From positions 1-24,909 of IMG/VR virus record IMGVR_UViG_3300021469_000007: a stretch of DNA of 24,909 nt; one strand, written 5' to 3'. The position numbers were made by a program, and so were the translations under genes. Source of the DNA: a virus. The notes beneath the pieces are model-generated. The model was not told the DNA's origin and searched no databases. It saw only the letters and a program-made list of their open reading frames with translations. This document shows positions 1-21,457 of this stretch, piece by piece (the first letter of the stretch is position 1; each line of letters starts with the position of its first letter).

Positions 1-1629
1 ATTTAACGGTATAACAGCTTCGGGGCCTTGTTCTCCAAGTAAAGCTATTGTTGGCTTTGTAACTATTCCTCCTTGTTGTAGGCCGATTATTTCTTCTTCA
101 CTTGTCATGGTAGTAATTGTGGCTTCACTTTTTCCTCCACCTGTAAACCATGATCCTAATCCGCTTATTGCTTTTTGAACTGTGTTTATTGCCCCAGCTA
201 TTGCGTCAAGTATTCCTTTTATAAAGTCAAGTGCAGGTTTAACAGTATTCCAAATAATATTTCCAAGATTTTGAAGCCAAGTTATAAATAATTGAATACC
301 GGCAACTATTTTATCAAAATTAGCTACAATAGCAAGAAGGGGACTAATTAAAATTTGTATTACTGGATGTAGATTTTTAAACCAATTCCATGCTTGTTGA
401 ATCCATCCGACAAGTGTTTTTATTCCCGGTATAAAATATTTGGTTAGAAAATTAGCTATTTCAGTTATTACGGGAGCCAAAGCTTGACCAATCTCTAAAT
501 ATAAGTCTTGAACAGCGGCGTTCATTTTCTTCATTACTCCACTTGTAGTTGAAAGTTGTTTTTCCGTTACTTTACTTGCTGTTCCAGTTTTAGCGACTTT
601 TTCACTTAACTGTTCTAATACTTGACTTGCTGTTGTTCCTTCTTTATGCATTGCTTCAAGTCCCATTCGACTTAGACCTAATTCTTTAGCAAGTCTTACA
701 GATTCTTCTTGTGTTACTCCACTTGCTTCACCTAGATTCATTAATGCTAAGGCTGCCCTCATACTTTGACTACCGAAAATTTCAGTTAAATAAGCGTCTC
801 TTTCAGCTTGAGAGCCAAATGTAGCTAAATGGTCACTTAGATTTTGTATAATTTCAGTTAAACTTAACATTTTTCCGCTTTCATCATAGATTGAAAAGCC
901 TAGTTTATCGCTTTTCTCTATTAAGTCTTTGAACATACTAGCTAGATATCGACCGGCTTTTTCAGCGGCTATTCCCTGATTGTTTAAGGCTACTAGGGCC
1001 GCTAATGTTTCTTCTAGACTTATACCCATACTTGCCGCTTGACCACCCACATAGGATAATGCGAGAGCAAAGTCGGCGGCAGTGTCTATTCCTGCGGCTG
1101 AGGCGTTAACTAACATATCGGTTACTTTACTTGCTTCTTCGGCTGTGAATTTAAATTGTGACATTACTCCTACAAGTAAATCAGCCGCTTGACCGGCGTT
1201 AATATTTTCTATTGTTGAGAGTTGTAAAGTTGCGTTTAAAGCTTGTATTGCTTGTTCTCCCTCTAAACCGGCTTTAACTAAACTTTCTAAAGCTTGTGCC
1301 GCCTGATTAGCACCAACACCAAATTGTAGTCCAGCGTCTTTAGATGCTTTTATTAGTTCATCACTTAGTCTTTCAAATTCATCTCCAGTTACACCGCTTA
1401 GTGCAACTGTTCTTGTAATTGTTTCTTCAAAATCGGCGAAATACTTTATACTATCTTCAATGGCTCCCTTTAATGCTCCTAACGCATCATAAGCAAGCAT
1501 TCCACTTAGAACACCAGCAGCCATCCCGGCAATGTTTTTTAAACCACTAAGACTACTGTTTATACGGTTTACTGTTCCACTAACTTGATCCTCTCCAATA
1601 AATTTGAATATAACAGTTCTTTCAGACAT
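1..1629 (-). CDS. Tail tape measure protein (TP901-like), 3' end cut by window edge
   Basis: The reading frame is open from ATG at 1629 to base 1 with no stop, giving 543 residues of a longer protein. The N-terminal two thirds match the TP901-type tape measure core: small-residue-rich helices with phrases such as NAGQAADLLVG, FGSQSMRAALALMNLG and TSGVMKKMNAAVQDLYLEIG. A hydrophobic helical stretch follows at about 380-500. The last visible residues (LLGEQGPEAVIPL) match a motif common in tape measure proteins. It sets tail length and occupies the tail tube lumen. SD GGTGAT sits 4 nt before the ATG. It follows the gp10-like gene, within the usual tail order. Family call is firm; full length is unknown. 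Confidence 0.93.
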   Translation of the reverse strand, partial: MSERTVIFKFIGEDQVSGTVNRINSSLSGLKNIAGMAAGVLSGMLAYDALGALKGAIEDSIKYFADFEETITRTVALSGVTGDEFERLSDELIKASKDAGLQFGVGANQAAQALESLVKAGLEGEQAIQALNATLQLSTIENINAGQAADLLVGVMSQFKFTAEEASKVTDMLVNASAAGIDTAADFALALSYVGGQAASMGISLEETLAALVALNNQGIAAEKAGRYLASMFKDLIEKSDKLGFSIYDESGKMLSLTEIIQNLSDHLATFGSQAERDAYLTEIFGSQSMRAALALMNLGEASGVTQEESVRLAKELGLSRMGLEAMHKEGTTASQVLEQLSEKVAKTGTASKVTEKQLSTTSGVMKKMNAAVQDLYLEIGQALAPVITEIANFLTKYFIPGIKTLVGWIQQAWNWFKNLHPVIQILISPLLAIVANFDKIVAGIQLFITWLQNLGNIIWNTVKPALDFIKGILDAIAGAINTVQKAISGLGSWFTGGGKSEATITTMTSEEEIIGLQQGGIVTKPTIALLGEQGPEAVIPLN

Positions 1630-1634
1630 TTATA

Positions 1635-1976
1635 TCACCTTAAAGCTTTAATAATACGTTCAATAAACTTTTTAGGAAAATATTTCATAATTGCCGGTCT
1701 CAAATAGGGTTTCGGAGACATTCGGGAAGTTCCATATTCAACATAAATTGCATAGGGAGCTGATGCTCCAACTTCTAAAGTTAATTTTCCAGTTTTCTTA
1801 TGATATATTGATGAGCGAAGAAATCCTGTTCTTACGGGAACTATTCTTTTAGCTTCTTTTTCAATGTCTTGCCCGAGTTTTTCAAGTTCACTTGGAACTA
1901 TTTTTTCCATTAAATTTTTTATTTTCTTTAACTCGTCTTCTACATCTTTAGAGTCTATTTTTATTGACATTGACAT
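1635..1976 (-). CDS. HK97 gp10-like tail/head-tail completion protein
   Basis: A 113-residue protein starting at ATG 1976. It shows the HK97-gp10 pattern: an N-terminal helical region, then VPVRTGFLRSSI, a beta-rich middle with YAIYVEYGTSRMSPKPYLRPA, and a basic C-terminus. In the family this protein acts at the head-tail joint or tail completion. An upstream GTG/ATG extension to 1997 is possible, but it would add overlap with the frameshifted chaperone frame; GAGG lies 9 nt before ATG 1976, and ATG 1970 is an alternative. Its place between the chaperone and the tape measure is unusual, because gp10 homologues normally precede the tail terminator gene. Confidence 0.85.
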   Translation of the reverse strand: MSMSIKIDSKDVEDELKKIKNLMEKIVPSELEKLGQDIEKEAKRIVPVRTGFLRSSIYHKKTGKLTLEVGASAPYAIYVEYGTSRMSPKPYLRPAIMKYFPKKFIERIIKALR

Positions 1977-2184
1977 TTTTCCAAGCCTCACGTTCACGTT
2001 TTAAATCCTCATTAATAAGTAAGAGTAAAGCTTGAATTTCAACATCAGTTATATTATCCACTTCTAAAGGTGAAATTCCATAGAAACGAGCTATAAGATG
2101 TTTCACTATTATATGTTGGGTGAAAGTGTCGTATTCTTCTAGGTGTCCTGTTCGGTAGGCTTCAAGTAAAGATGTTACTTGAAG
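1948..2184 (-). CDS. Tail assembly chaperone, gpT-like extension read by -1 frameshift
   Basis: This 78-codon frame (CTT CAA GTA ACA ... CTC TAA) lies in the -1 frame relative to the upstream chaperone gene and ends at 1948. It contains no ATG and has a stop a short way upstream of the slip site, so it has no obvious way to start alone. Its peptide (ending LEVDNITDVEIQALLLLINE followed by DLKREREAWK) resembles the C-terminal T part of lambda-like gpGT. With the slip at 2184-2190 the fusion protein would be about 169 residues: 91 from the G part and 78 from the T part. Such fusions load onto the tape measure during tail assembly. It overlaps the start of the gp10-like gene by about 29 nt. Confidence 0.85.
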   Translation of the reverse strand, partial: LQVTSLLEAYRTGHLEEYDTFTQHIIVKHLIARFYGISPLEVDNITDVEIQALLLLINEDLKREREAWKNVNVNKNRL

Positions 2185-2190
2185 AAAGGG
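2160..2190 (-). promoter_or_regulatory. Programmed -1 ribosomal frameshift element
   Basis: On the minus strand the heptamer C CCT TTC (2190-2184) has the X XXY YYZ form in the zero frame of the chaperone gene, 6 nt before that gene's TAA stop. It is followed at once by a perfect 10-bp inverted repeat, CTTCAAGTAA and TTACTTGAAG (2184-2175 and 2169-2160), with a 5-nt loop. The stem begins at the last base of the heptamer, closer than the usual 5-9 nt spacer. The stop codon lies in the stem. Slippery heptamer, hairpin and open -1 frame all agree. Confidence 0.85.
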
Positions 2191-2456
2191 AGTGTATTGA
2201 ATTCCATGATTTTATTGAAAATATATTCTGCAATTGCTCCATCCATATTTTCTATTTCTTCAAGTGACATTTCAGGTTCTTTTATACCGAAGCGTAAAGC
2301 ATTTAACATTAACTCGTAAACATCCATTGTTTTTATTCGGCCTGTTCTAGGATCAACCTTTGCAGCGGCACGATAGATTAATCCTTTTTCTTTAAAGGTG
2401 AAACGTTTAATGGTGAAAGTTTTTTCTCCTATTTTAATTTGTTTTTCAGTTTCCAA
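2175..2456 (-). CDS. Tail assembly chaperone, gpG-like short form
   Basis: A 93-residue protein from TTG at 2456; AGGTGA sits 5 nt upstream. The in-frame GTG at 2465 is part of that SD and is rejected as start. It lies directly after the tail tube gene and before the tape measure, which is where tail assembly chaperones sit. The short form stops at 2175; a fraction of ribosomes should slip to -1 and make the longer G-T form. The protein binds the tape measure and recruits tube subunits and is not expected in the virion. Identity rests on context, length and the frameshift more than on sequence motifs. Confidence 0.83.
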   Translation of the reverse strand: METEKQIKIGEKTFTIKRFTFKEKGLIYRAAAKVDPRTGRIKTMDVYELMLNALRFGIKEPEMSLEEIENMDGAIAEYIFNKIMEFNTLPFFK

Positions 2457-2467
2457 GTTTATCACCT

Positions 2468-3289
2468 TTACGCTAGTGTTATTGATTTAGCTGTGAATGG
2501 TAGTCTCATGGCTATTAAGTCAGTTGGACGTGCTGGAATTCGATATTCACCCCATTTACAACCGGTTATTTCAACATAGTTTGTCGAACTTAACTTAAAC
2601 TTTAATGTAAAGTCACTGTCATTAGTTATTTCAGTTAATTCATCGAAGTCTTCGAAGGTTGCTGTTATTAGACCTGTTATGTCACGATGTTTTTCAATTA
2701 TTGTTTTTGGTGTTTCAGCCCAGTCAGGTATTCTTTCAAGATTATTTCTAACCCGGACTTCGAAGCTTAACGCCTTTGCCAATGCATTACCACCTTTTTC
2801 AACAGCGTTACTTGGTGGAACTAATGGATCAGATTCAGGGTCTGAAGTTTGTGTGGCGTTGGTTGGAGCTGTTTCACTATGTGTTTTTCCAAACCATGAT
2901 ATTTCAGCGTCAATTGAATATCCCGGTCTTCCTCTAATTAGAAGCTCATTAGCTTTACATCCGGGTATAATGAGTTCTTTTGATGTTTTAGTGAATGTTA
3001 GCCACCATGTGACACTTTTAGTTATATTTGTGATTGCGTATTGCATTACAGTTGTCTGTGTAGGCTTTAAAACTGTTCTTAAATCAACAAGCTCTCTTAT
3101 CTTTCTTATTCTTGCAACATCTCTTGAGCCGGCGAGATATCGTATTAGTTCACGTTCAGGAATAACTGCTGCCTCTATTTCTACAATGTCACCCCAATCA
3201 TAGGTTACGTTGTCAGGCGCTGTTCCCCATTCTGTTTCCTCTTTGTATCCGGCCTTAATGGCCCATCCTCTTTCAATAACTATACTCAT
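2468..3289 (-). CDS. Major tail (tube) protein
   Basis: A 273-residue, beta-rich protein from ATG 3289 with SD GAGGAGTGA. It has the look of a siphovirus tail tube subunit: an N-terminal phrase with GYKEETEWGTAP, several strand-forming segments, a long loop rich in Thr, Ser, Asp and Pro (residues about 135-160), and a C-terminus ending in LPFTAKSITLA. It sits between the tail terminator region and the chaperone gene, as expected. The subunit would polymerise around the tape measure to make the tail tube. The loop may be an exposed surface insertion. No catalytic motifs are seen. Confidence 0.75.
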   Translation of the reverse strand: MSIVIERGWAIKAGYKEETEWGTAPDNVTYDWGDIVEIEAAVIPERELIRYLAGSRDVARIRKIRELVDLRTVLKPTQTTVMQYAITNITKSVTWWLTFTKTSKELIIPGCKANELLIRGRPGYSIDAEISWFGKTHSETAPTNATQTSDPESDPLVPPSNAVEKGGNALAKALSFEVRVRNNLERIPDWAETPKTIIEKHRDITGLITATFEDFDELTEITNDSDFTLKFKLSSTNYVEITGCKWGEYRIPARPTDLIAMRLPFTAKSITLA

Positions 3290-10362: not shown

Positions 10363-11751
10363 TTATTTACTAACATAAAGAAAAATCTTAGGAACCCTTA
10401 TCACATCTGGAGAAGGCCCAGTAAAAGCGGCGTAAACAGCAAGTGCAAAAGCCCACAACATATCATCATGTGTTCCTTCAGGATGATAAAATCTTATTCG
10501 TCCTTGTTTAGTCATCTCATATTTTTCAACATTTAATTCAGCTATAAAATCACGGTCATAAGGAAACTTAACTTTCCCCTCTTTCATTTTCTGTTTAAGT
10601 AAACTCATTATCTCCTCTTTTCTCGGTAAACTGAGCATGACGCCTTCAATATTTCCTAGTCCAATGTTTTTCATATCTTCAACGATATATTCACCAACAC
10701 CAGTTTGATCCACATGAACACTGTTGACACTACTCCACCTGTCACAAAGAACTTTTACATATCCTATTACAGATGCATAACTGGTTCCAAGTGGAAATCT
10801 TTTTAAATGAATATGTCTAACTAAATCATCTTTTTTATCAACAGCACTTATAACTGAATAATCATGTTTTTTACCGAGATCCAATCCAATATAAATTTCA
10901 CGGCCCGAAATCTTATCTTCAAACTCAACATAATCAAGGTCATGGTCTATACACTTAGCTATAAGGCTTTGAGGCAAATAACTTGTTTCATCTTCAACCC
11001 ATTCAGCCTCCATTTCACGTATCCAACGATTTTGGTCTCCCTCATACTGTTTCCGTAATTTCTCAAACATGTTTCTTTTAATCGGGCCATTTGGCTCTAA
11101 TGCTTCACGCCAAGTAATGTGACTTTTAACATAATCTTGAAAAGCCGGCTCATAATGAACTGCATAAAAAACACTATCAATATTAAACGGTGTTGACGCA
11201 CCTATGAATTTACCATATTTTCTAGTTATAAGTGTAAAAAGTATTGCGTCAAACATTTCCTTATCATTAGGAGTAAAATTCATTTCATCCCAAAAAATAA
11301 TGTCAAAAGTCGGCCCACGTATAGTTTCAGGATTATTTGGAAAACACTTTGTAGTTGAACCATTAGTTATTTCAATAATTGTTTTTCTCTTCTTATAATA
11401 CCATTCTTTAGGTAATTTTTCTAGGAAATTATTTATTATCTTGATGATCCGTTTACTTTGACGGAAAGACGGTCCAATAATCGCAATGTTACTGTTCGGA
11501 TACTTTAACATGTACCATAGTAGAAAAGCTGAAACCGTCCAAGTTTTACCACTTTGACGACACCAACGAATAATTGTAAATTGATTTTCCAAAATTTTAT
11601 AAATTAAGTCACGTTGATAACTAAACGGCTTGAAACCTAAAAATTTCTCGAAAAATTCACATGGATCATCAGGAACTCTTATTTTAGAATATTTCTTTTT
11701 TAACATATCTTCAATCTTTTTTGTTAAACGTTCAAGTTCACTTTTACTCAT
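10363..11751 (-). CDS. Terminase large subunit (packaging ATPase-nuclease)
   Basis: A 462-residue protein from ATG 11751 with AGGTGA upstream; the GTG at 11760 lies in the SD. ATPase motifs: Walker A WCRQSGKT (about 63-70) and Walker B IIFWDEM (about 152-157), followed by the coupling phrase GASTP. The C-terminal RNase H-like nuclease shows its three acidic positions in GLDLGKKHD, HVDQTGVGE and THDDMLWAFAL. It pumps and cuts viral DNA during head filling. It starts 5 nt after the DruA-like gene ends. No recognisable small subunit gene is adjacent. The complete motif set indicates an active enzyme. Confidence 0.96.
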   Translation of the reverse strand: MSKSELERLTKKIEDMLKKKYSKIRVPDDPCEFFEKFLGFKPFSYQRDLIYKILENQFTIIRWCRQSGKTWTVSAFLLWYMLKYPNSNIAIIGPSFRQSKRIIKIINNFLEKLPKEWYYKKRKTIIEITNGSTTKCFPNNPETIRGPTFDIIFWDEMNFTPNDKEMFDAILFTLITRKYGKFIGASTPFNIDSVFYAVHYEPAFQDYVKSHITWREALEPNGPIKRNMFEKLRKQYEGDQNRWIREMEAEWVEDETSYLPQSLIAKCIDHDLDYVEFEDKISGREIYIGLDLGKKHDYSVISAVDKKDDLVRHIHLKRFPLGTSYASVIGYVKVLCDRWSSVNSVHVDQTGVGEYIVEDMKNIGLGNIEGVMLSLPRKEEIMSLLKQKMKEGKVKFPYDRDFIAELNVEKYEMTKQGRIRFYHPEGTHDDMLWAFALAVYAAFTGPSPDVIRVPKIFLYVSK

Positions 11752-11756
11752 AAATT

Positions 11757-12458
11757 TCACCTTAAAAGTTCACGACGCCAATAACGATGGAGAGGTTTCA
11801 CATAAATCTGTTTAGGGCCATCAACAGCTTTTACTGTCTTAATATTTCCATTTTTAAAATAAGGCAAACCAGATGATCCTTTACTTACACTTTTAAGCGA
11901 AAATCCACGTGTATAACCTAGAAATATCCAATTAGCTGCTTTAAATATTGTTCCTTTATATTTTCTATGAACAAACGAGACAAGTAAAACAAGTTTATCA
12001 TTATACTTTTCTTTCCAATCATGTTTAACTTGACTATAAAAAAGACTTAAAGCTTTACTAGGAATGTTTTTAGGAGCTTTAGAAGTGAAACATACACGTA
12101 GTAAACATGAAACTTTATTGAAGTTTCTTTTTCTTTGTTCTTTATTCCAGCCGATGAAGGTTTTTAGTGGCTTTGAATCACGTAAAACATAACTACCAAC
12201 AATGAAGGCGCCGACAATTATATTATCATTGAAAATTAAATATCTAATTTGTCGGCCTACAAAATTTGTTGACGGTTTATAACTATGATGATCCAGAATT
12301 ATTTTTCTAACAAGACTTTTTTCTCTACTTGTTCTACAAAGTTTAATTTTTACTTCTCCAAGTTTTAATCTATTGTGAAATGCGGTGGGCCGGATTTGCA
12401 CCGGCGCCGTCAAACTGGGTGTTTGACGCTCTACTTGGTCTAAACTACCACCGCTCAA
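11757..12458 (-). CDS. DruA-like (DUF4338) protein
   Basis: About 233 residues from TTG 12458, chosen because GGTGAT lies a few nt upstream and no ATG, GTG or TTG occurs in frame between the tRNA-like segment and the conserved core. Core motifs fit DUF4338, the family of DruA from Druantia defence: LDHHSYKPSTNFVGRQIRYLI, then FIGWNKEQRKRN, SKALSLF, HDWKEKYNDKLVLLVSFV and GTIFKAANWIFLGYTRG. The last phrase is also reminiscent of Mom-type DNA modification enzymes. Role is unknown: anti-restriction DNA modification or inter-virus defence are both possible. It precedes the terminase by 5 nt and so is probably co-expressed late. The first 25 or so residues are encoded by the tRNA-like gene. Confidence 0.8.
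   Translation of the reverse strand: MSGGSLDQVERQTPSLTAPVQIRPTAFHNRLKLGEVKIKLCRTSREKSLVRKIILDHHSYKPSTNFVGRQIRYLIFNDNIIVGAFIVGSYVLRDSKPLKTFIGWNKEQRKRNFNKVSCLLRVCFTSKAPKNIPSKALSLFYSQVKHDWKEKYNDKLVLLVSFVHRKYKGTIFKAANWIFLGYTRGFSLKSVSKGSSGLPYFKNGNIKTVKAVDGPKQIYVKPLHRYWRRELLR
12381..12454 (-). tRNA. Degenerate tRNA-Gly(CCC)-like gene
   Basis: The minus strand folds as a cloverleaf: acceptor stem GCGGTGG with CCACCGC (7 of 7 pairs), anticodon stem TCAAA with TTTGA (5 of 5), T stem GCCGG with CCGGC (5 of 5), 4-nt variable loop, weak D stem GTTT with GAGC, and discriminator A. The anticodon loop CACCCAG puts CCC at 34-36. G1-C72, C2-G71, G3-C70 and A73 fit archaeal tRNA-Gly. However, normally invariant bases differ: A at 33 in place of U, TGCAAAT in place of TTCAAAT in the T loop, and AAG in the D loop where GG is expected. 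No CCA is encoded. It may be decayed, a tRNA mimic, or a former attachment site. Confidence 0.7.
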
Positions 12459-12835
12459 AAAAATCACCAAAAATAAATAAAGTGGAGTTGAACTCCCAAT
12501 TTATTTAAAAATGAATGTGGATTTTATTCCCAAGTTATTTATAAATATGGTGGGATCAAATCCCACGGGAATAAACATGTTTGTGATAAACACCTTTAAA
12601 ATAATCATAGTTATATAACAACCGTTATAAAAACTAATGATTGTTAGACAAATCACTGTTAGACTAAAATGTTTTAGGGGCCTATAATTCTCATAATCAT
12701 TATTCCCATAATCATAGTCACTATAATTATAATTAACTATAACTTTGGTGTATAATAATATACCAATATGTCATTTTTTGGAATATTATATATAGTGAAA
12801 GAATAATTACTGGTGATATCATCAGTTACTGGTGG
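12459..12835. other. Non-coding, repeat-rich region, candidate control region or origin
   Basis: No convincing gene occurs here. It contains three 34-nt repeats (12481-12582), a nested inverted repeat (TTTATTCCC at 12523-12531 with GGGAATAAA at 12567-12575, enclosing GTGGGAT and ATCCCAC), two TGTTAGAC copies 15 nt apart (12642 and 12657), two ATAATCATAGT copies (about 12600 and 12709), very AT-rich stretches around 12721-12800, and one ATATCATCA (12816-12824), the motif clustered at 19528-19956. TATA-like boxes at 12500-12510 and 12535-12548 could serve the DruA-terminase operon. It has the ingredients of a promoter/operator or replication start. Confidence 0.6.
12481..12582 (-). repeat. Three 34-nt direct repeats with internal dyads
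   Basis: Read on the minus strand, units cover about 12582-12549, 12548-12515 and 12514-12481. The second and third align without gaps: ATTT, A or T, TAAATAA, then TTGGGA..T..A..TCCAC. Each has a dyad of type GGGA-N5/7-TCCC (GGAGTT-G-AACTCC at 12484-12496; GTGGGAT-CAA-ATCCCAC at 12550-12566). Two units also hold a TATA-like TTTATAAATA or TTTAAATAA. Such spacing, about three helical turns, suits an iterated protein-binding site beside a promoter. Confidence 0.65.
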
Positions 12836-19556: not shown

Positions 19557-19956
19557 CACTATATCATCACCTTCTTTCTACGGGTATATCATCACGCTTT
19601 GATTGAAGTGATGATATTATATCATCATTTTTCAGAATAGGCCAGCTTGTTAATTTCAAGTATATTGTATTATTTTTTCTTTCAAGAGTTATTTTTCCCT
19701 CTAAAATTAACTGTTCAATTATTTTGTCGGGGTTTGTTATTCCGTTTGTTATACATGTTTTTATGAATGTTTGTTGTGTTATTCCTTCGGGTTGATATTT
19801 GTCTATTAGGTTGATGATCCAGCGTTTTAGACTTAAAGTATCTATATCTGTGGGGAGTGATGATATAATATCATCATTTTCTTGAGTGGGTGATGATATT
19901 TGTTTGGGTTTTAAGTGATGGTTTAATGATGATATTTGTGTTTGTTGTGATGATAT
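19528..19956. repeat. Iteron-like cluster of TGATGATAT motifs inside genes
   Basis: Ten close matches to [AG]TGATGATAT or its complement lie here: 19528-19537, 19550-19559 (one mismatch), 19561-19570, 19586-19595, 19608-19617, 19619-19628, 19857-19866, 19868-19877, 19890-19899 and 19947-19956, with an ATGATGATAT at 19926-19935 as well. Two pairs meet head-to-head with one base between (19608-19628 and 19857-19877), giving perfect 21-base palindromes. They span the 3' end of the AAA+ gene and the 5' end of the nuclease gene, in more than one reading frame. Candidate replication origin or protein-loading site. Confidence 0.75.
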
Positions 19957-21282
19957 TTGTTGTGTAAATAATCTTAATGTAGATGGTTGATATCTTCGTG
20001 CAAGTCTCATTATTAACGCTTCATCATAATATATTGTTGTTCTACTGTCTTCGCTTGACATTCTGGCTTTTTTGAATCCTAGTTTCTTTACTATTCGGCC
20101 GAGTTTTTGTGGTGATATTTTTTGTTTCTCATTTTTATTTTCATTTATATATTCTAGTATTATTTGTAAGGGTATTTTTCCCCGTTCAACAAAGGGTTTA
20201 CTTTTTATTATTGAATCTAAAACTTCTGCTTCAATAGTTGTTAATTCTTCTTCTCTTATTATTCGGCTTATTTTTTCTCCATATTTTATTAATTGTTTTT
20301 TTACTTCTTTTTTAGGTGTAGTTATTAGAGGGGCGATGAATAACTCGGTTAGACGGCCGTTTTCTCCAATTCTAATTATTTTTTCTTCTGAAACTGTGAA
20401 TGGTTCTTGAATTAATTTTTGTATTCTATATCTCATAAGTTTGGCTCTTATTTTTTTCGCCCATTCTTTATCGAGAAGGATTTTTACTTTCCGTATGGCT
20501 CGAGACATATTCATTATGAAGCATCTTGACTGGAAAGTTGGAGAAAGTAATTGTGTGCATGCGACAGCTTTAAATCCATATACATCATATAATCCTAGTT
20601 CAAGTTTATTTTCACCAATTTTTTCGACACGAATGGCACATTGTCCACGTCTATATCCTGAGTTTAAGAGAGCCATGACTTCAAGAAGTTCACTACGGGT
20701 GTAAATTTCAGCCTCATCAAGTAAAACAGTTGGATGCCAAGCTTCACAGGCCCGAAATAATCCTGCCGGCCTAATACTTGTTGACATTAAACCCCTATAA
20801 CAAAGCTGCCATAAAACTTCAAGTAATCTTGTTTTTCCACTGTTAAGTGGGCCGACTACAAAAATATATGGTACAACATCAAATTTTTCTTGTATCCATG
20901 TCGCCATGATCCAACTTGTAACTATCGCGTAATGTTCTTTTTCACTGAAATCTACATGTTCATAAACATAATTGTATATTTCTTGCCATAACTCTATTTC
21001 ATTTATTTTCTCCTTGCTAGGAAATAGAATTTCAGGCCATGGCAATCTTTTTAAACCAACTTCAAAGATTTCATTTCCGTCTTCATCAACTCCTTTCATT
21101 CGTAACGGTGGCCTACTAACACTTATATGAAATTTATTTGGATCTCCACGAATAAAACGAGCTTCACAATAAGCATATTGTCCCTCTTTATCAATTACTT
21201 GTTCAAAAAGATAATTTCTAACCGGATCATAATAACCCGGCGTTTCAATTTTAACTATTTTTTCTTTCTTCTTTTTAGGCAT
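19567..21282 (-). CDS. AAA+ ATPase/helicase with C-terminal winged-helix-like region
   Basis: About 571 residues from ATG 21282 (AGGTGA upstream). ATPase motifs: Walker A VGPLNSGKT (about 143-151), Walker B VLLDEAE (about 186-192), a sensor-1-like strand KAVACTQ and an Arg finger candidate in FQSRCF. The N-terminal 100 residues are beta-rich. After the core come helix-turn-helix-like segments (EAEVLDSIIKSKP and ISPQKLGRIVKKLGFK), a low-complexity Ser/Gln linker with repeated QISS and DDIISSL, and another winged-helix-like end. It most likely is the replicative helicase or initiator. The Ser/Gln linker coincides with the TGATGATAT cluster. Confidence 0.78.
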   Translation of the reverse strand: MPKKKKEKIVKIETPGYYDPVRNYLFEQVIDKEGQYAYCEARFIRGDPNKFHISVSRPPLRMKGVDEDGNEIFEVGLKRLPWPEILFPSKEKINEIELWQEIYNYVYEHVDFSEKEHYAIVTSWIMATWIQEKFDVVPYIFVVGPLNSGKTRLLEVLWQLCYRGLMSTSIRPAGLFRACEAWHPTVLLDEAEIYTRSELLEVMALLNSGYRRGQCAIRVEKIGENKLELGLYDVYGFKAVACTQLLSPTFQSRCFIMNMSRAIRKVKILLDKEWAKKIRAKLMRYRIQKLIQEPFTVSEEKIIRIGENGRLTELFIAPLITTPKKEVKKQLIKYGEKISRIIREEELTTIEAEVLDSIIKSKPFVERGKIPLQIILEYINENKNEKQKISPQKLGRIVKKLGFKKARMSSEDSRTTIYYDEALIMRLARRYQPSTLRLFTQQISSQQTQISSLNHHLKPKQISSPTQENDDIISSLPTDIDTLSLKRWIINLIDKYQPEGITQQTFIKTCITNGITNPDKIIEQLILEGKITLERKNNTIYLKLTSWPILKNDDIISSLQSKRDDIPVERR

Positions 21283-21457
21283 CTTCATCACCTATTTTTT
21301 CAATTATAATCTTGACTTTTCCTTTCCAAATTCGCTTAGTCATAATAACACTCATGTGATTGCTATCTACATGCTCAAAATAGGTTTCATATCTTTCAGC
21401 ATGAAGATAATTACTTCCATCACCAATAGCAATAATAACTTCTTTTTTATTCTCCAT
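21275..21457 (-). CDS. Small protein, unknown
   Basis: About 60 residues from ATG 21457, which overlaps the end of the preceding gene; ATG 21466 is an alternative and neither has a strong SD. Sequence MENKKEVIIAIGDGSNYLHA then RYETYFEHVDSNHMSVIMTK. It appears to be a beta-rich single domain. The stop overlaps the start region of the AAA+ gene. No family recognised. Confidence 0.55.
   Translation of the reverse strand: MENKKEVIIAIGDGSNYLHAERYETYFEHVDSNHMSVIMTKRIWKGKVKIIIEKIGDEDA

What the first reader, a model, noticed from the sequence alone, without database searches (positions are those of the whole stretch)
2160..2190. Textbook -1 frameshift cassette in an archaeal-virus tail chaperone gene
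CCCTTTC sits in the right phase 6 nt before the gpG-like stop and is followed immediately by a perfect 10-bp stem (CTTCAAGTAA/TTACTTGAAG, loop of 5). The -1 frame is open for 78 codons, has no ATG, and reads like a gpT domain. Lambda-type G/GT frameshifting is well known in bacterial phages; direct evidence in archaeal viruses is sparse. The C/T-type heptamer and a stem with no spacer are also unusual.
Basis: partly seen in the sequence, partly recalled or inferred. Interest (0 to 1): 0.85.

Follow-up and report, generated by a model that had tools for sequence, protein, structure and literature searches.

The report
Frameshifted tail chaperone, Bathyarchaeia virus
A virus that very probably infects Bathyarchaeia archaea appears to make two versions of a tail-assembly helper protein by letting some ribosomes slip back one base at a fixed site; 89 related virus loci keep a slip site at the same junction, but the neighbouring RNA hairpin is not conserved.

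Summary
On the minus strand, C_CCT_TTC (2190-2184) lies in phase near the 3' end of a gpG-like gene, 6 nt before its TAA. The -1 frame is open for 78 codons without ATG, and a perfect 10-bp hairpin (2184-2160) starts at the heptamer's last base. G is homologous to phage tail assembly chaperones, including a Bacillus phage G with an annotated G/GT join. The closest relative, a syntenic contig in a Bathyarchaeia genome, has C_CCT_TTA at the same place and a homologous T domain in the -1 frame. A T-domain search found 89 distinct G/T loci. All have an in-phase X_XXY_YYZ heptamer (88 in the main script, the last in an earlier one), against 9 and 7 in the two wrong phases. Heptamers fall into three classes: A_AAA_AAN, U_UUU_UUR and C_CCU_UUN. 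So -1 frameshifting is very likely. The hairpin is not shared by any relative and has zero spacing, so it is probably not the stimulator. Archaeal G/GT frameshifting is already annotated (HVTV-1, which I find carries GGGAAAG), and CCCUUUN is a known slip site elsewhere. Verdict: a well-supported new member of a known kind, in a host group where I found no earlier report. Frameshifting itself is inferred, not measured.

The parts
2175..2456 (-). gpG-like tail assembly chaperone (93 aa from TTG 2456; the ORF also offers GTG 2465)
   Evidence: 41% identical to G of the syntenic Bathyarchaeia contig L230; HMM of Bacillus-phage tail chaperones plus L084 finds it alone in the six-frame window at E 1.2e-5; AlphaFold model pLDDT 90, best PDB matches YqbN 3klu and HK97 chaperone 2ob9, TM about 0.57, weak E-values
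2461..2466 (-). GGTGAT Shine-Dalgarno, 4 nt before TTG 2456; same motif and spacing before the tape measure ATG 1629
   Evidence: sequence
2184..2190 (-). slippery heptamer C_CCT_TTC, in phase for -1
   Evidence: in-phase heptamer in all 89 distinct G/T loci (with L108); C_CCT_TTN in 8 relatives
1948..2184 (-). T domain, -1 frame, 78 codons plus stop, no ATG; predicted GT fusion 91 + 78 = 169 aa
   Evidence: phmmer with the L230 T finds this frame alone at E 2.2e-10; HMM of the other T domains at E 2.4e-5
2160..2184 (-). perfect 10-bp hairpin, loop 5, zero spacing from heptamer; contains the G stop codon; not conserved
2468..3289 (-). major tail tube protein
   Evidence: PF18906 1.6e-16
1635..1997 (-). 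HK97 gp10-like gene between T and tape measure (likely start ATG 1976, overlapping the T end)
   Evidence: PF04883 9e-16
1..1629 (-). tape measure protein, 3' end off the window
   Evidence: phrog_1533 6.7e-60, PF10145 9.6e-39
10363..11760 (-). terminase large subunit, used to find relatives

Best explanation
This is the G/GT tail assembly chaperone gene pair of a siphovirus-like tailed virus of Bathyarchaeia. Most ribosomes translate G and stop at TAA 2177-2175. A minority decode CCU (Pro) and UUC (Phe) at C_CCU_UUC, both tRNAs re-pair one base back on CCC and UUU, and translation continues as CUU CAA GUA... to give a 169-aa GT fusion. By analogy with lambda, G coats the tape measure and the T part recruits tail-tube subunits. 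The slip site is what selection keeps; the adjacent hairpin is probably coincidental or lineage-specific. Shown: the frames, homology of G and T, conserved heptamer phase, synteny, presence in archaeal genomes. Inferred: that slippage happens, its efficiency, and what GT does.
For: An in-phase X_XXY_YYZ lies at the G/T junction in 88 of 89 distinct loci, against 9 and 7 in the wrong phases; the 89th, L108, has AAAAAAC in phase. Heptamers: TTTTTTA 33, AAAAAAC 30, TTTTTTG 8, AAAAAAA 6, CCCTTTA 5, CCCTTTT 2, CCCTTTC 1, CCCTTTG 1, AAAAAAT 1, AAATTTT 1. Slip-site codons are fixed: Lys AAA 37/37 versus 50% elsewhere in those G genes, Phe TTT 41/41 versus 30%. The closest relative L230 (G219, a Bathyarchaeia-class genome with an archaeal 16S) is syntenic for TerL, portal, capsid, tube, G, T and gp10 and has C_CCT_TTA at the same place. 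Window T matches L230 T at E 2.2e-10. No start codon lies in the window T frame before the conserved domain (starts ). G homologs in Bacillus phage 019DV002 carry an annotated G/GT join with A_AAA_AAG in phase at the stop. TerL relatives occur in 116 of 257 and T in 40 and 7 of 257 Bathyarchaeia-class genomes, many on long contigs.
Against: No protein or ribosome data. [quoted passage not shown] Some relatives, mostly the A_AAA_AAN group, have an ATG in the T frame that could also give T alone. The 89 loci are related, so they are not independent. The window's own host is inferred from relatives only.
Confidence: 0.93

Rival explanations
1. T is a separate protein made by internal initiation or termination-reinitiation after the G stop.
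For: In the A_AAA_AAN group 35 of 37 loci have an ATG in the searched stretch of the T frame, typically in ...GGGCGATGAG just after the heptamer, so T alone may be made there in addition.
Against: The window T frame has no ATG, GTG or TTG before the conserved domain and no Shine-Dalgarno; 33 of 41 U_UUU_UUR loci have no start at all. Conservation with L230 begins right at the slip site. Reinitiation does not explain the conserved heptamer phase.
Confidence: 0.04
2. A sequencing error or indel split one G-T gene into two frames.
For: Any single metagenome contig can carry an indel.
Against: The same -1 arrangement is in 89 distinct loci from many assemblies and in Bathyarchaeia genomes, with fixed codon choice at the heptamer.
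Confidence: 0.01
3. The hairpin 2160-2184 is a true element of the window virus, e.g. a non-canonical stimulator or an element acting on ribosomes terminating at the UAA inside its 5' arm.
For: Perfect 10 bp adjoining the heptamer; z -2.25 to -3.1. Such hairpins are expected only 0.77 times per window, so falling exactly here by chance is improbable (my estimate below 1e-3).
Against: Absent from all other loci (longest perfect stem 6 bp there), including the closest relative L230. Zero spacing means the stem is unwound when the ribosome is on the heptamer (general knowledge of ribosome footprint). Two such hairpins occur in the window.
Confidence: 0.1
4. The junction is not ribosomal: transcriptional slippage, or +2 or another shift, joins the frames.
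For: A6 and T6 runs in relatives are also prone to polymerase slippage.
Against: The window's site and most other CCCTTTN sites have no run longer than three or four bases, and the in-phase X_XXY_YYZ rule is specific to tandem tRNA slippage.
Confidence: 0.03

Closest known systems
Phage lambda gpG/gpGT tail assembly chaperone (-1 frameshift)
   Same: Gene order tube - G - GT - tape measure; in-phase heptamer near the 3' end of G; T only as a fusion
   Different: Heptamer is C_CCU_UUC, not lambda's G_GGA_AAG (heptamer from memory); a gp10-like gene lies between T and tape measure; T recognised only within its own family
Haloarchaeal virus HVTV-1 (and HCTV-1, -2, -5) tail assembly chaperones
   Same: Archaeal tailed virus; G and joined GT annotated in KC117377; reviewed in PMC8211752 and PMC5009743
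   Different: HVTV-1 uses GGGAAAG; sequence kinship of its G and T to the window's was not tested; different host phylum
Bacillus phage 019DV002 and Andromedavirus tail assembly chaperones
   Same: Homologous G (linked to the window by HMM) and T (group with A_AAA_AAN or U_UUU_UUR); 019DV002 annotated as joined G/GT
   Different: Bacterial host; A_AAA_AAG or A_AAA_AAA site; the nearest relative's G finds no match in phage records by pairwise search
CCCUUUN slip sites: West Nile and Japanese encephalitis virus; Giardiavirus (proposed); E. coli phage 9g CCCUUUUUUU
   Same: Same heptamer class
   Different: Eukaryotic hosts with pseudoknots; phage 9g is described as a -2 shift in the G/T gene

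Membership tests
Lambda-type G/GT tail assembly chaperone with -1 frameshift | Lies between major tail tube and tape measure genes | tested here: met
   Tube upstream, tape measure downstream, with one gp10-like gene between T and tape measure
Lambda-type G/GT tail assembly chaperone with -1 frameshift | G belongs to the tail assembly chaperone family | tested here: met
   HMM from Bacillus-phage chaperones plus L084 hits the window G at E 1.2e-5; model resembles YqbN and HK97 chaperone, though Foldseek E-values are weak
Lambda-type G/GT tail assembly chaperone with -1 frameshift | In-phase X_XXY_YYZ near the 3' end of G, conserved in relatives | tested here: met
Lambda-type G/GT tail assembly chaperone with -1 frameshift | T domain in the -1 frame, conserved, without its own start | tested here: met
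Lambda-type G/GT tail assembly chaperone with -1 frameshift | GT fusion actually made at a low ratio to G and needed for tail assembly | not testable with these tools
   Needs proteomics or genetics
Canonical structure-stimulated -1 frameshift cassette | Stem-loop or pseudoknot 5-9 nt downstream of the heptamer | tested here: not met
   Window stem has spacer zero; z -0.51 for the fold starting 5 nt downstream; no conserved structure in 88 loci; the 5-9 nt spacing rule is quoted in PMC8211752. Pseudoknots were not modelled.
Tailed viruses of Bathyarchaeia | Core proteins most similar to those in Bathyarchaeia genomes | tested here: met
   TerL up to 55% identical to loci in Bathyarchaeia-class genomes, among the best of all loci collected; capsid relative in a Ca. 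Hecatellales MAG; TerL in 116 of 257 genomes of the class
Tailed viruses of Bathyarchaeia | Direct host link of the window virus (CRISPR spacer, integration site, isolation) | not tested
   No spacer search was run; the window record is a linear fragment

The most novel reading that the evidence does not exclude
Across Bathyarchaeia tailed viruses the -1 shift is driven by the slip site alone: lineages have exchanged heptamer class (A_AAA_AAN, U_UUU_UUR, C_CCU_UUN) while the phase and the fused product stayed fixed, and no structured stimulator is needed by these archaeal ribosomes.
Probability: 0.5. Interest if true: 0.6.

Novelty: new member of a known kind. Interest (0 to 1): 0.5.

Why it matters
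Programmed frameshifting is poorly documented in archaea: the review read here lists one experimentally shown -1 case in a cellular gene and a few predicted haloarchaeal virus cases. Here is a natural series of 89 loci, many in genomes of a widespread and largely uncultured archaeal class, with the phase held constant while the slippery sequence changes. That lets archaeal slip-site rules be tested directly in reporters, and warns that annotation of these viruses can miss or truncate the T domain.

Tried and rejected
Single-sequence searches with G, T and the tail tube found no relatives in viral contigs, and phrogs and pfam gave nothing usable for the window G and T. Relatives came only through TerL, capsid and gp10. 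The hairpin as stimulator was tested and rejected as a conserved element. A pseudoknot was not modelled. SD-like upstream stimulators: none in the C_CCT_TTN group; 17 of 37 and 20 of 41 in the other groups, read as codon content (GAG GAG) and not claimed. The two primary papers on haloarchaeal frameshifting are not in the library, so the HVTV-1 heptamer was read from the record itself. L226 (AAATTTT) is an uncertain site. L108 scored 'none' although one search shows AAAAAAC in phase.

Full report
WHAT IS THERE. The window is a 24,909-bp linear virus record. Its structural genes run on the minus strand: TerL, portal, capsid, connector, tail terminator, tail tube, the gene in question, an HK97 gp10-like gene and the tape measure gene. 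G reads ...CTC CCT TTC TTC AAG TAA, so C_CCT_TTC (2190..2184) is in phase for a -1 shift, and the -1 frame continues for 78 codons to 1950-1948. The most likely G start is TTG 2456, behind GGTGAT with a 4-nt spacer, the same arrangement as before the tape measure ATG. The predicted fusion is 169 aa. Without T there would be about 200 nt of non-coding DNA between the G stop and the likely gp10 start in an otherwise packed gene array.

WHO THE RELATIVES ARE. Searches with G, T or tail tube alone found nothing. TerL found seven viral contigs, and the capsid protein found a contig of a Candidatus Hecatellales MAG, an order of Bathyarchaeia. Alignments of TerL and gp10 then brought in about 140 loci. 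In the class of that MAG, TerL relatives occur in 116 of 257 genomes and T domains in 40 and 7 of 257, many on contigs of more than 100 kb. Archaeal 16S was found in 4 of 9 of these genomes searched, among them G219; for G058 and G140 it lies on the same contig as the T locus. The window's TerL is up to 55% identical to loci in these genomes. The window virus is therefore very probably archaeal and probably infects Bathyarchaeia.

WHAT IS CONSERVED. HMMs of the T domain gave 89 distinct G/T loci. In 88 an X_XXY_YYZ heptamer lies in the -1 phase at the junction, against 9 and 7 in the other phases. The remaining one, L108, shows AAAAAAC in phase. Three classes occur: A_AAA_AAN (37), U_UUU_UUR (41) and C_CCU_UUN (9), plus one uncertain AAATTTT. 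At the slip site Lys is always AAA and Phe always TTT, although these codons are used 50% and 30% of the time elsewhere in the same genes. In the U_UUU_UUR group the G frame usually continues 40-46 codons under the T domain, and 33 of 41 loci have no start codon in the T frame.

THE NEAREST RELATIVE. L230 (G219, contig 10) is syntenic with the window: TerL 40%, portal 33%, capsid 36%, tube 30%, G 41%, gp10 39% identity. Its G ends ...FNGVPLPKPNAF* where the window has ...FNTLPFFK*. The DNA reads GTC CCT TTA versus CTC CCT TTC, and both -1 frames continue into a homologous T domain (E 2.2e-10). Heptamer position, phase and product are all kept.

IS IT A TAIL CHAPERONE. An HMM of Bacillus-phage tail chaperones plus L084 picks out the window G alone at E 1.2e-5. 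Bacillus phage 019DV002 has this G annotated with a joined GT and A_AAA_AAG in phase at its stop. The AlphaFold model of the window G (pLDDT 90) has YqbN (3klu) as its best PDB match and the HK97 tail assembly chaperone (2ob9) among the top five, TM about 0.57, with weak E-values. T of the A/U-heptamer group matches phrog_9001, tail assembly chaperone, at 7e-13. The two T groups are related by profile comparison. T of the window folds as helices with moderate confidence (pLDDT 77).

THE HAIRPIN. It is real but not part of a conserved cassette. Of 88 loci folded, only the window has a perfect stem of 7 bp or more near the site. Mean z is -0.35 for folds starting at the heptamer's last base and -0.27 for folds starting 5 nt after it. 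With zero spacing it would be unwound when the ribosome decodes the heptamer. Perfect 10-bp hairpins are expected about 0.8 times per window by chance. Its exact placement remains a coincidence I cannot fully explain away.

NOVELTY. G/GT frameshifting in archaeal tailed viruses has been proposed and annotated for HVTV-1 and HCTV-1, -2 and -5 (PMC8211752, PMC5009743). HVTV-1's record has the joined GT with GGGAAAG in phase. CCCUUUN is a known or proposed slip site in flaviviruses and Giardiavirus (PMC3835772, PMC8230311). A CCCUUUUUUU motif is described in the G/T gene of phage 9g as a -2 site (PMC4276943). The word 'frameshift' does not occur in the main text of two Bathyarchaeia-virus or provirus papers (PMC10848311, PMC11705971), and in PMC8651126 it was not found (its one match, 'frameshifting', is in a reference title). 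This is a new member of a known kind, with unusually strong comparative support and a new host group as far as the held literature shows.

LIMITS. No expression data; the 89 loci are phylogenetically related; the host of the window itself is inferred; pseudoknots were not searched.

Noticed in passing
L017, L063, L058-L062, L065, L019 (TerL region): In several relatives the terminase large subunit is split between the ATPase and nuclease domains, with the nuclease ORF in the +1 frame and in most a short overlap. In L060 and L061 the nuclease ORF has no ATG, GTG or TTG. The ATPase part ends in a shared PDSFFGF* in L058-L061 and L065, where in L065 about 300 nt intervene. This could be a gene split or a second, +1 frameshift; the window's TerL is intact.
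   Followed up: partly
window 12381-12454 (-): A tRNA-Gly (CCC) gene overlaps the 5' part of a DruA-like ORF (11757-12470); the ORF's real start is probably downstream. It might mark an attachment site.
   Followed up: no
L030, L111, L112, L120 and other U_UUU_UUR loci: The G frame runs on 40-46 codons beneath the T domain, so both frames are open there and the unshifted G would carry a Ser/Gln-rich tail.
   Followed up: partly
A_AAA_AAN loci, e.g. L113, L116, L138: An ATG in the T frame lies just after the heptamer, often overlapping or close to the G stop, so T alone might be made there by reinitiation in addition to GT.
   Followed up: partly
window 1635-1997 (-): The gp10-like gene sits between T and the tape measure gene instead of before the tail tube, and the same order is seen in L017, L012 and L230.
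   Followed up: partly
window 19586-19617: A second perfect 10-bp hairpin (loop 12) lies inside the ORF 19567-21291.
   Followed up: no
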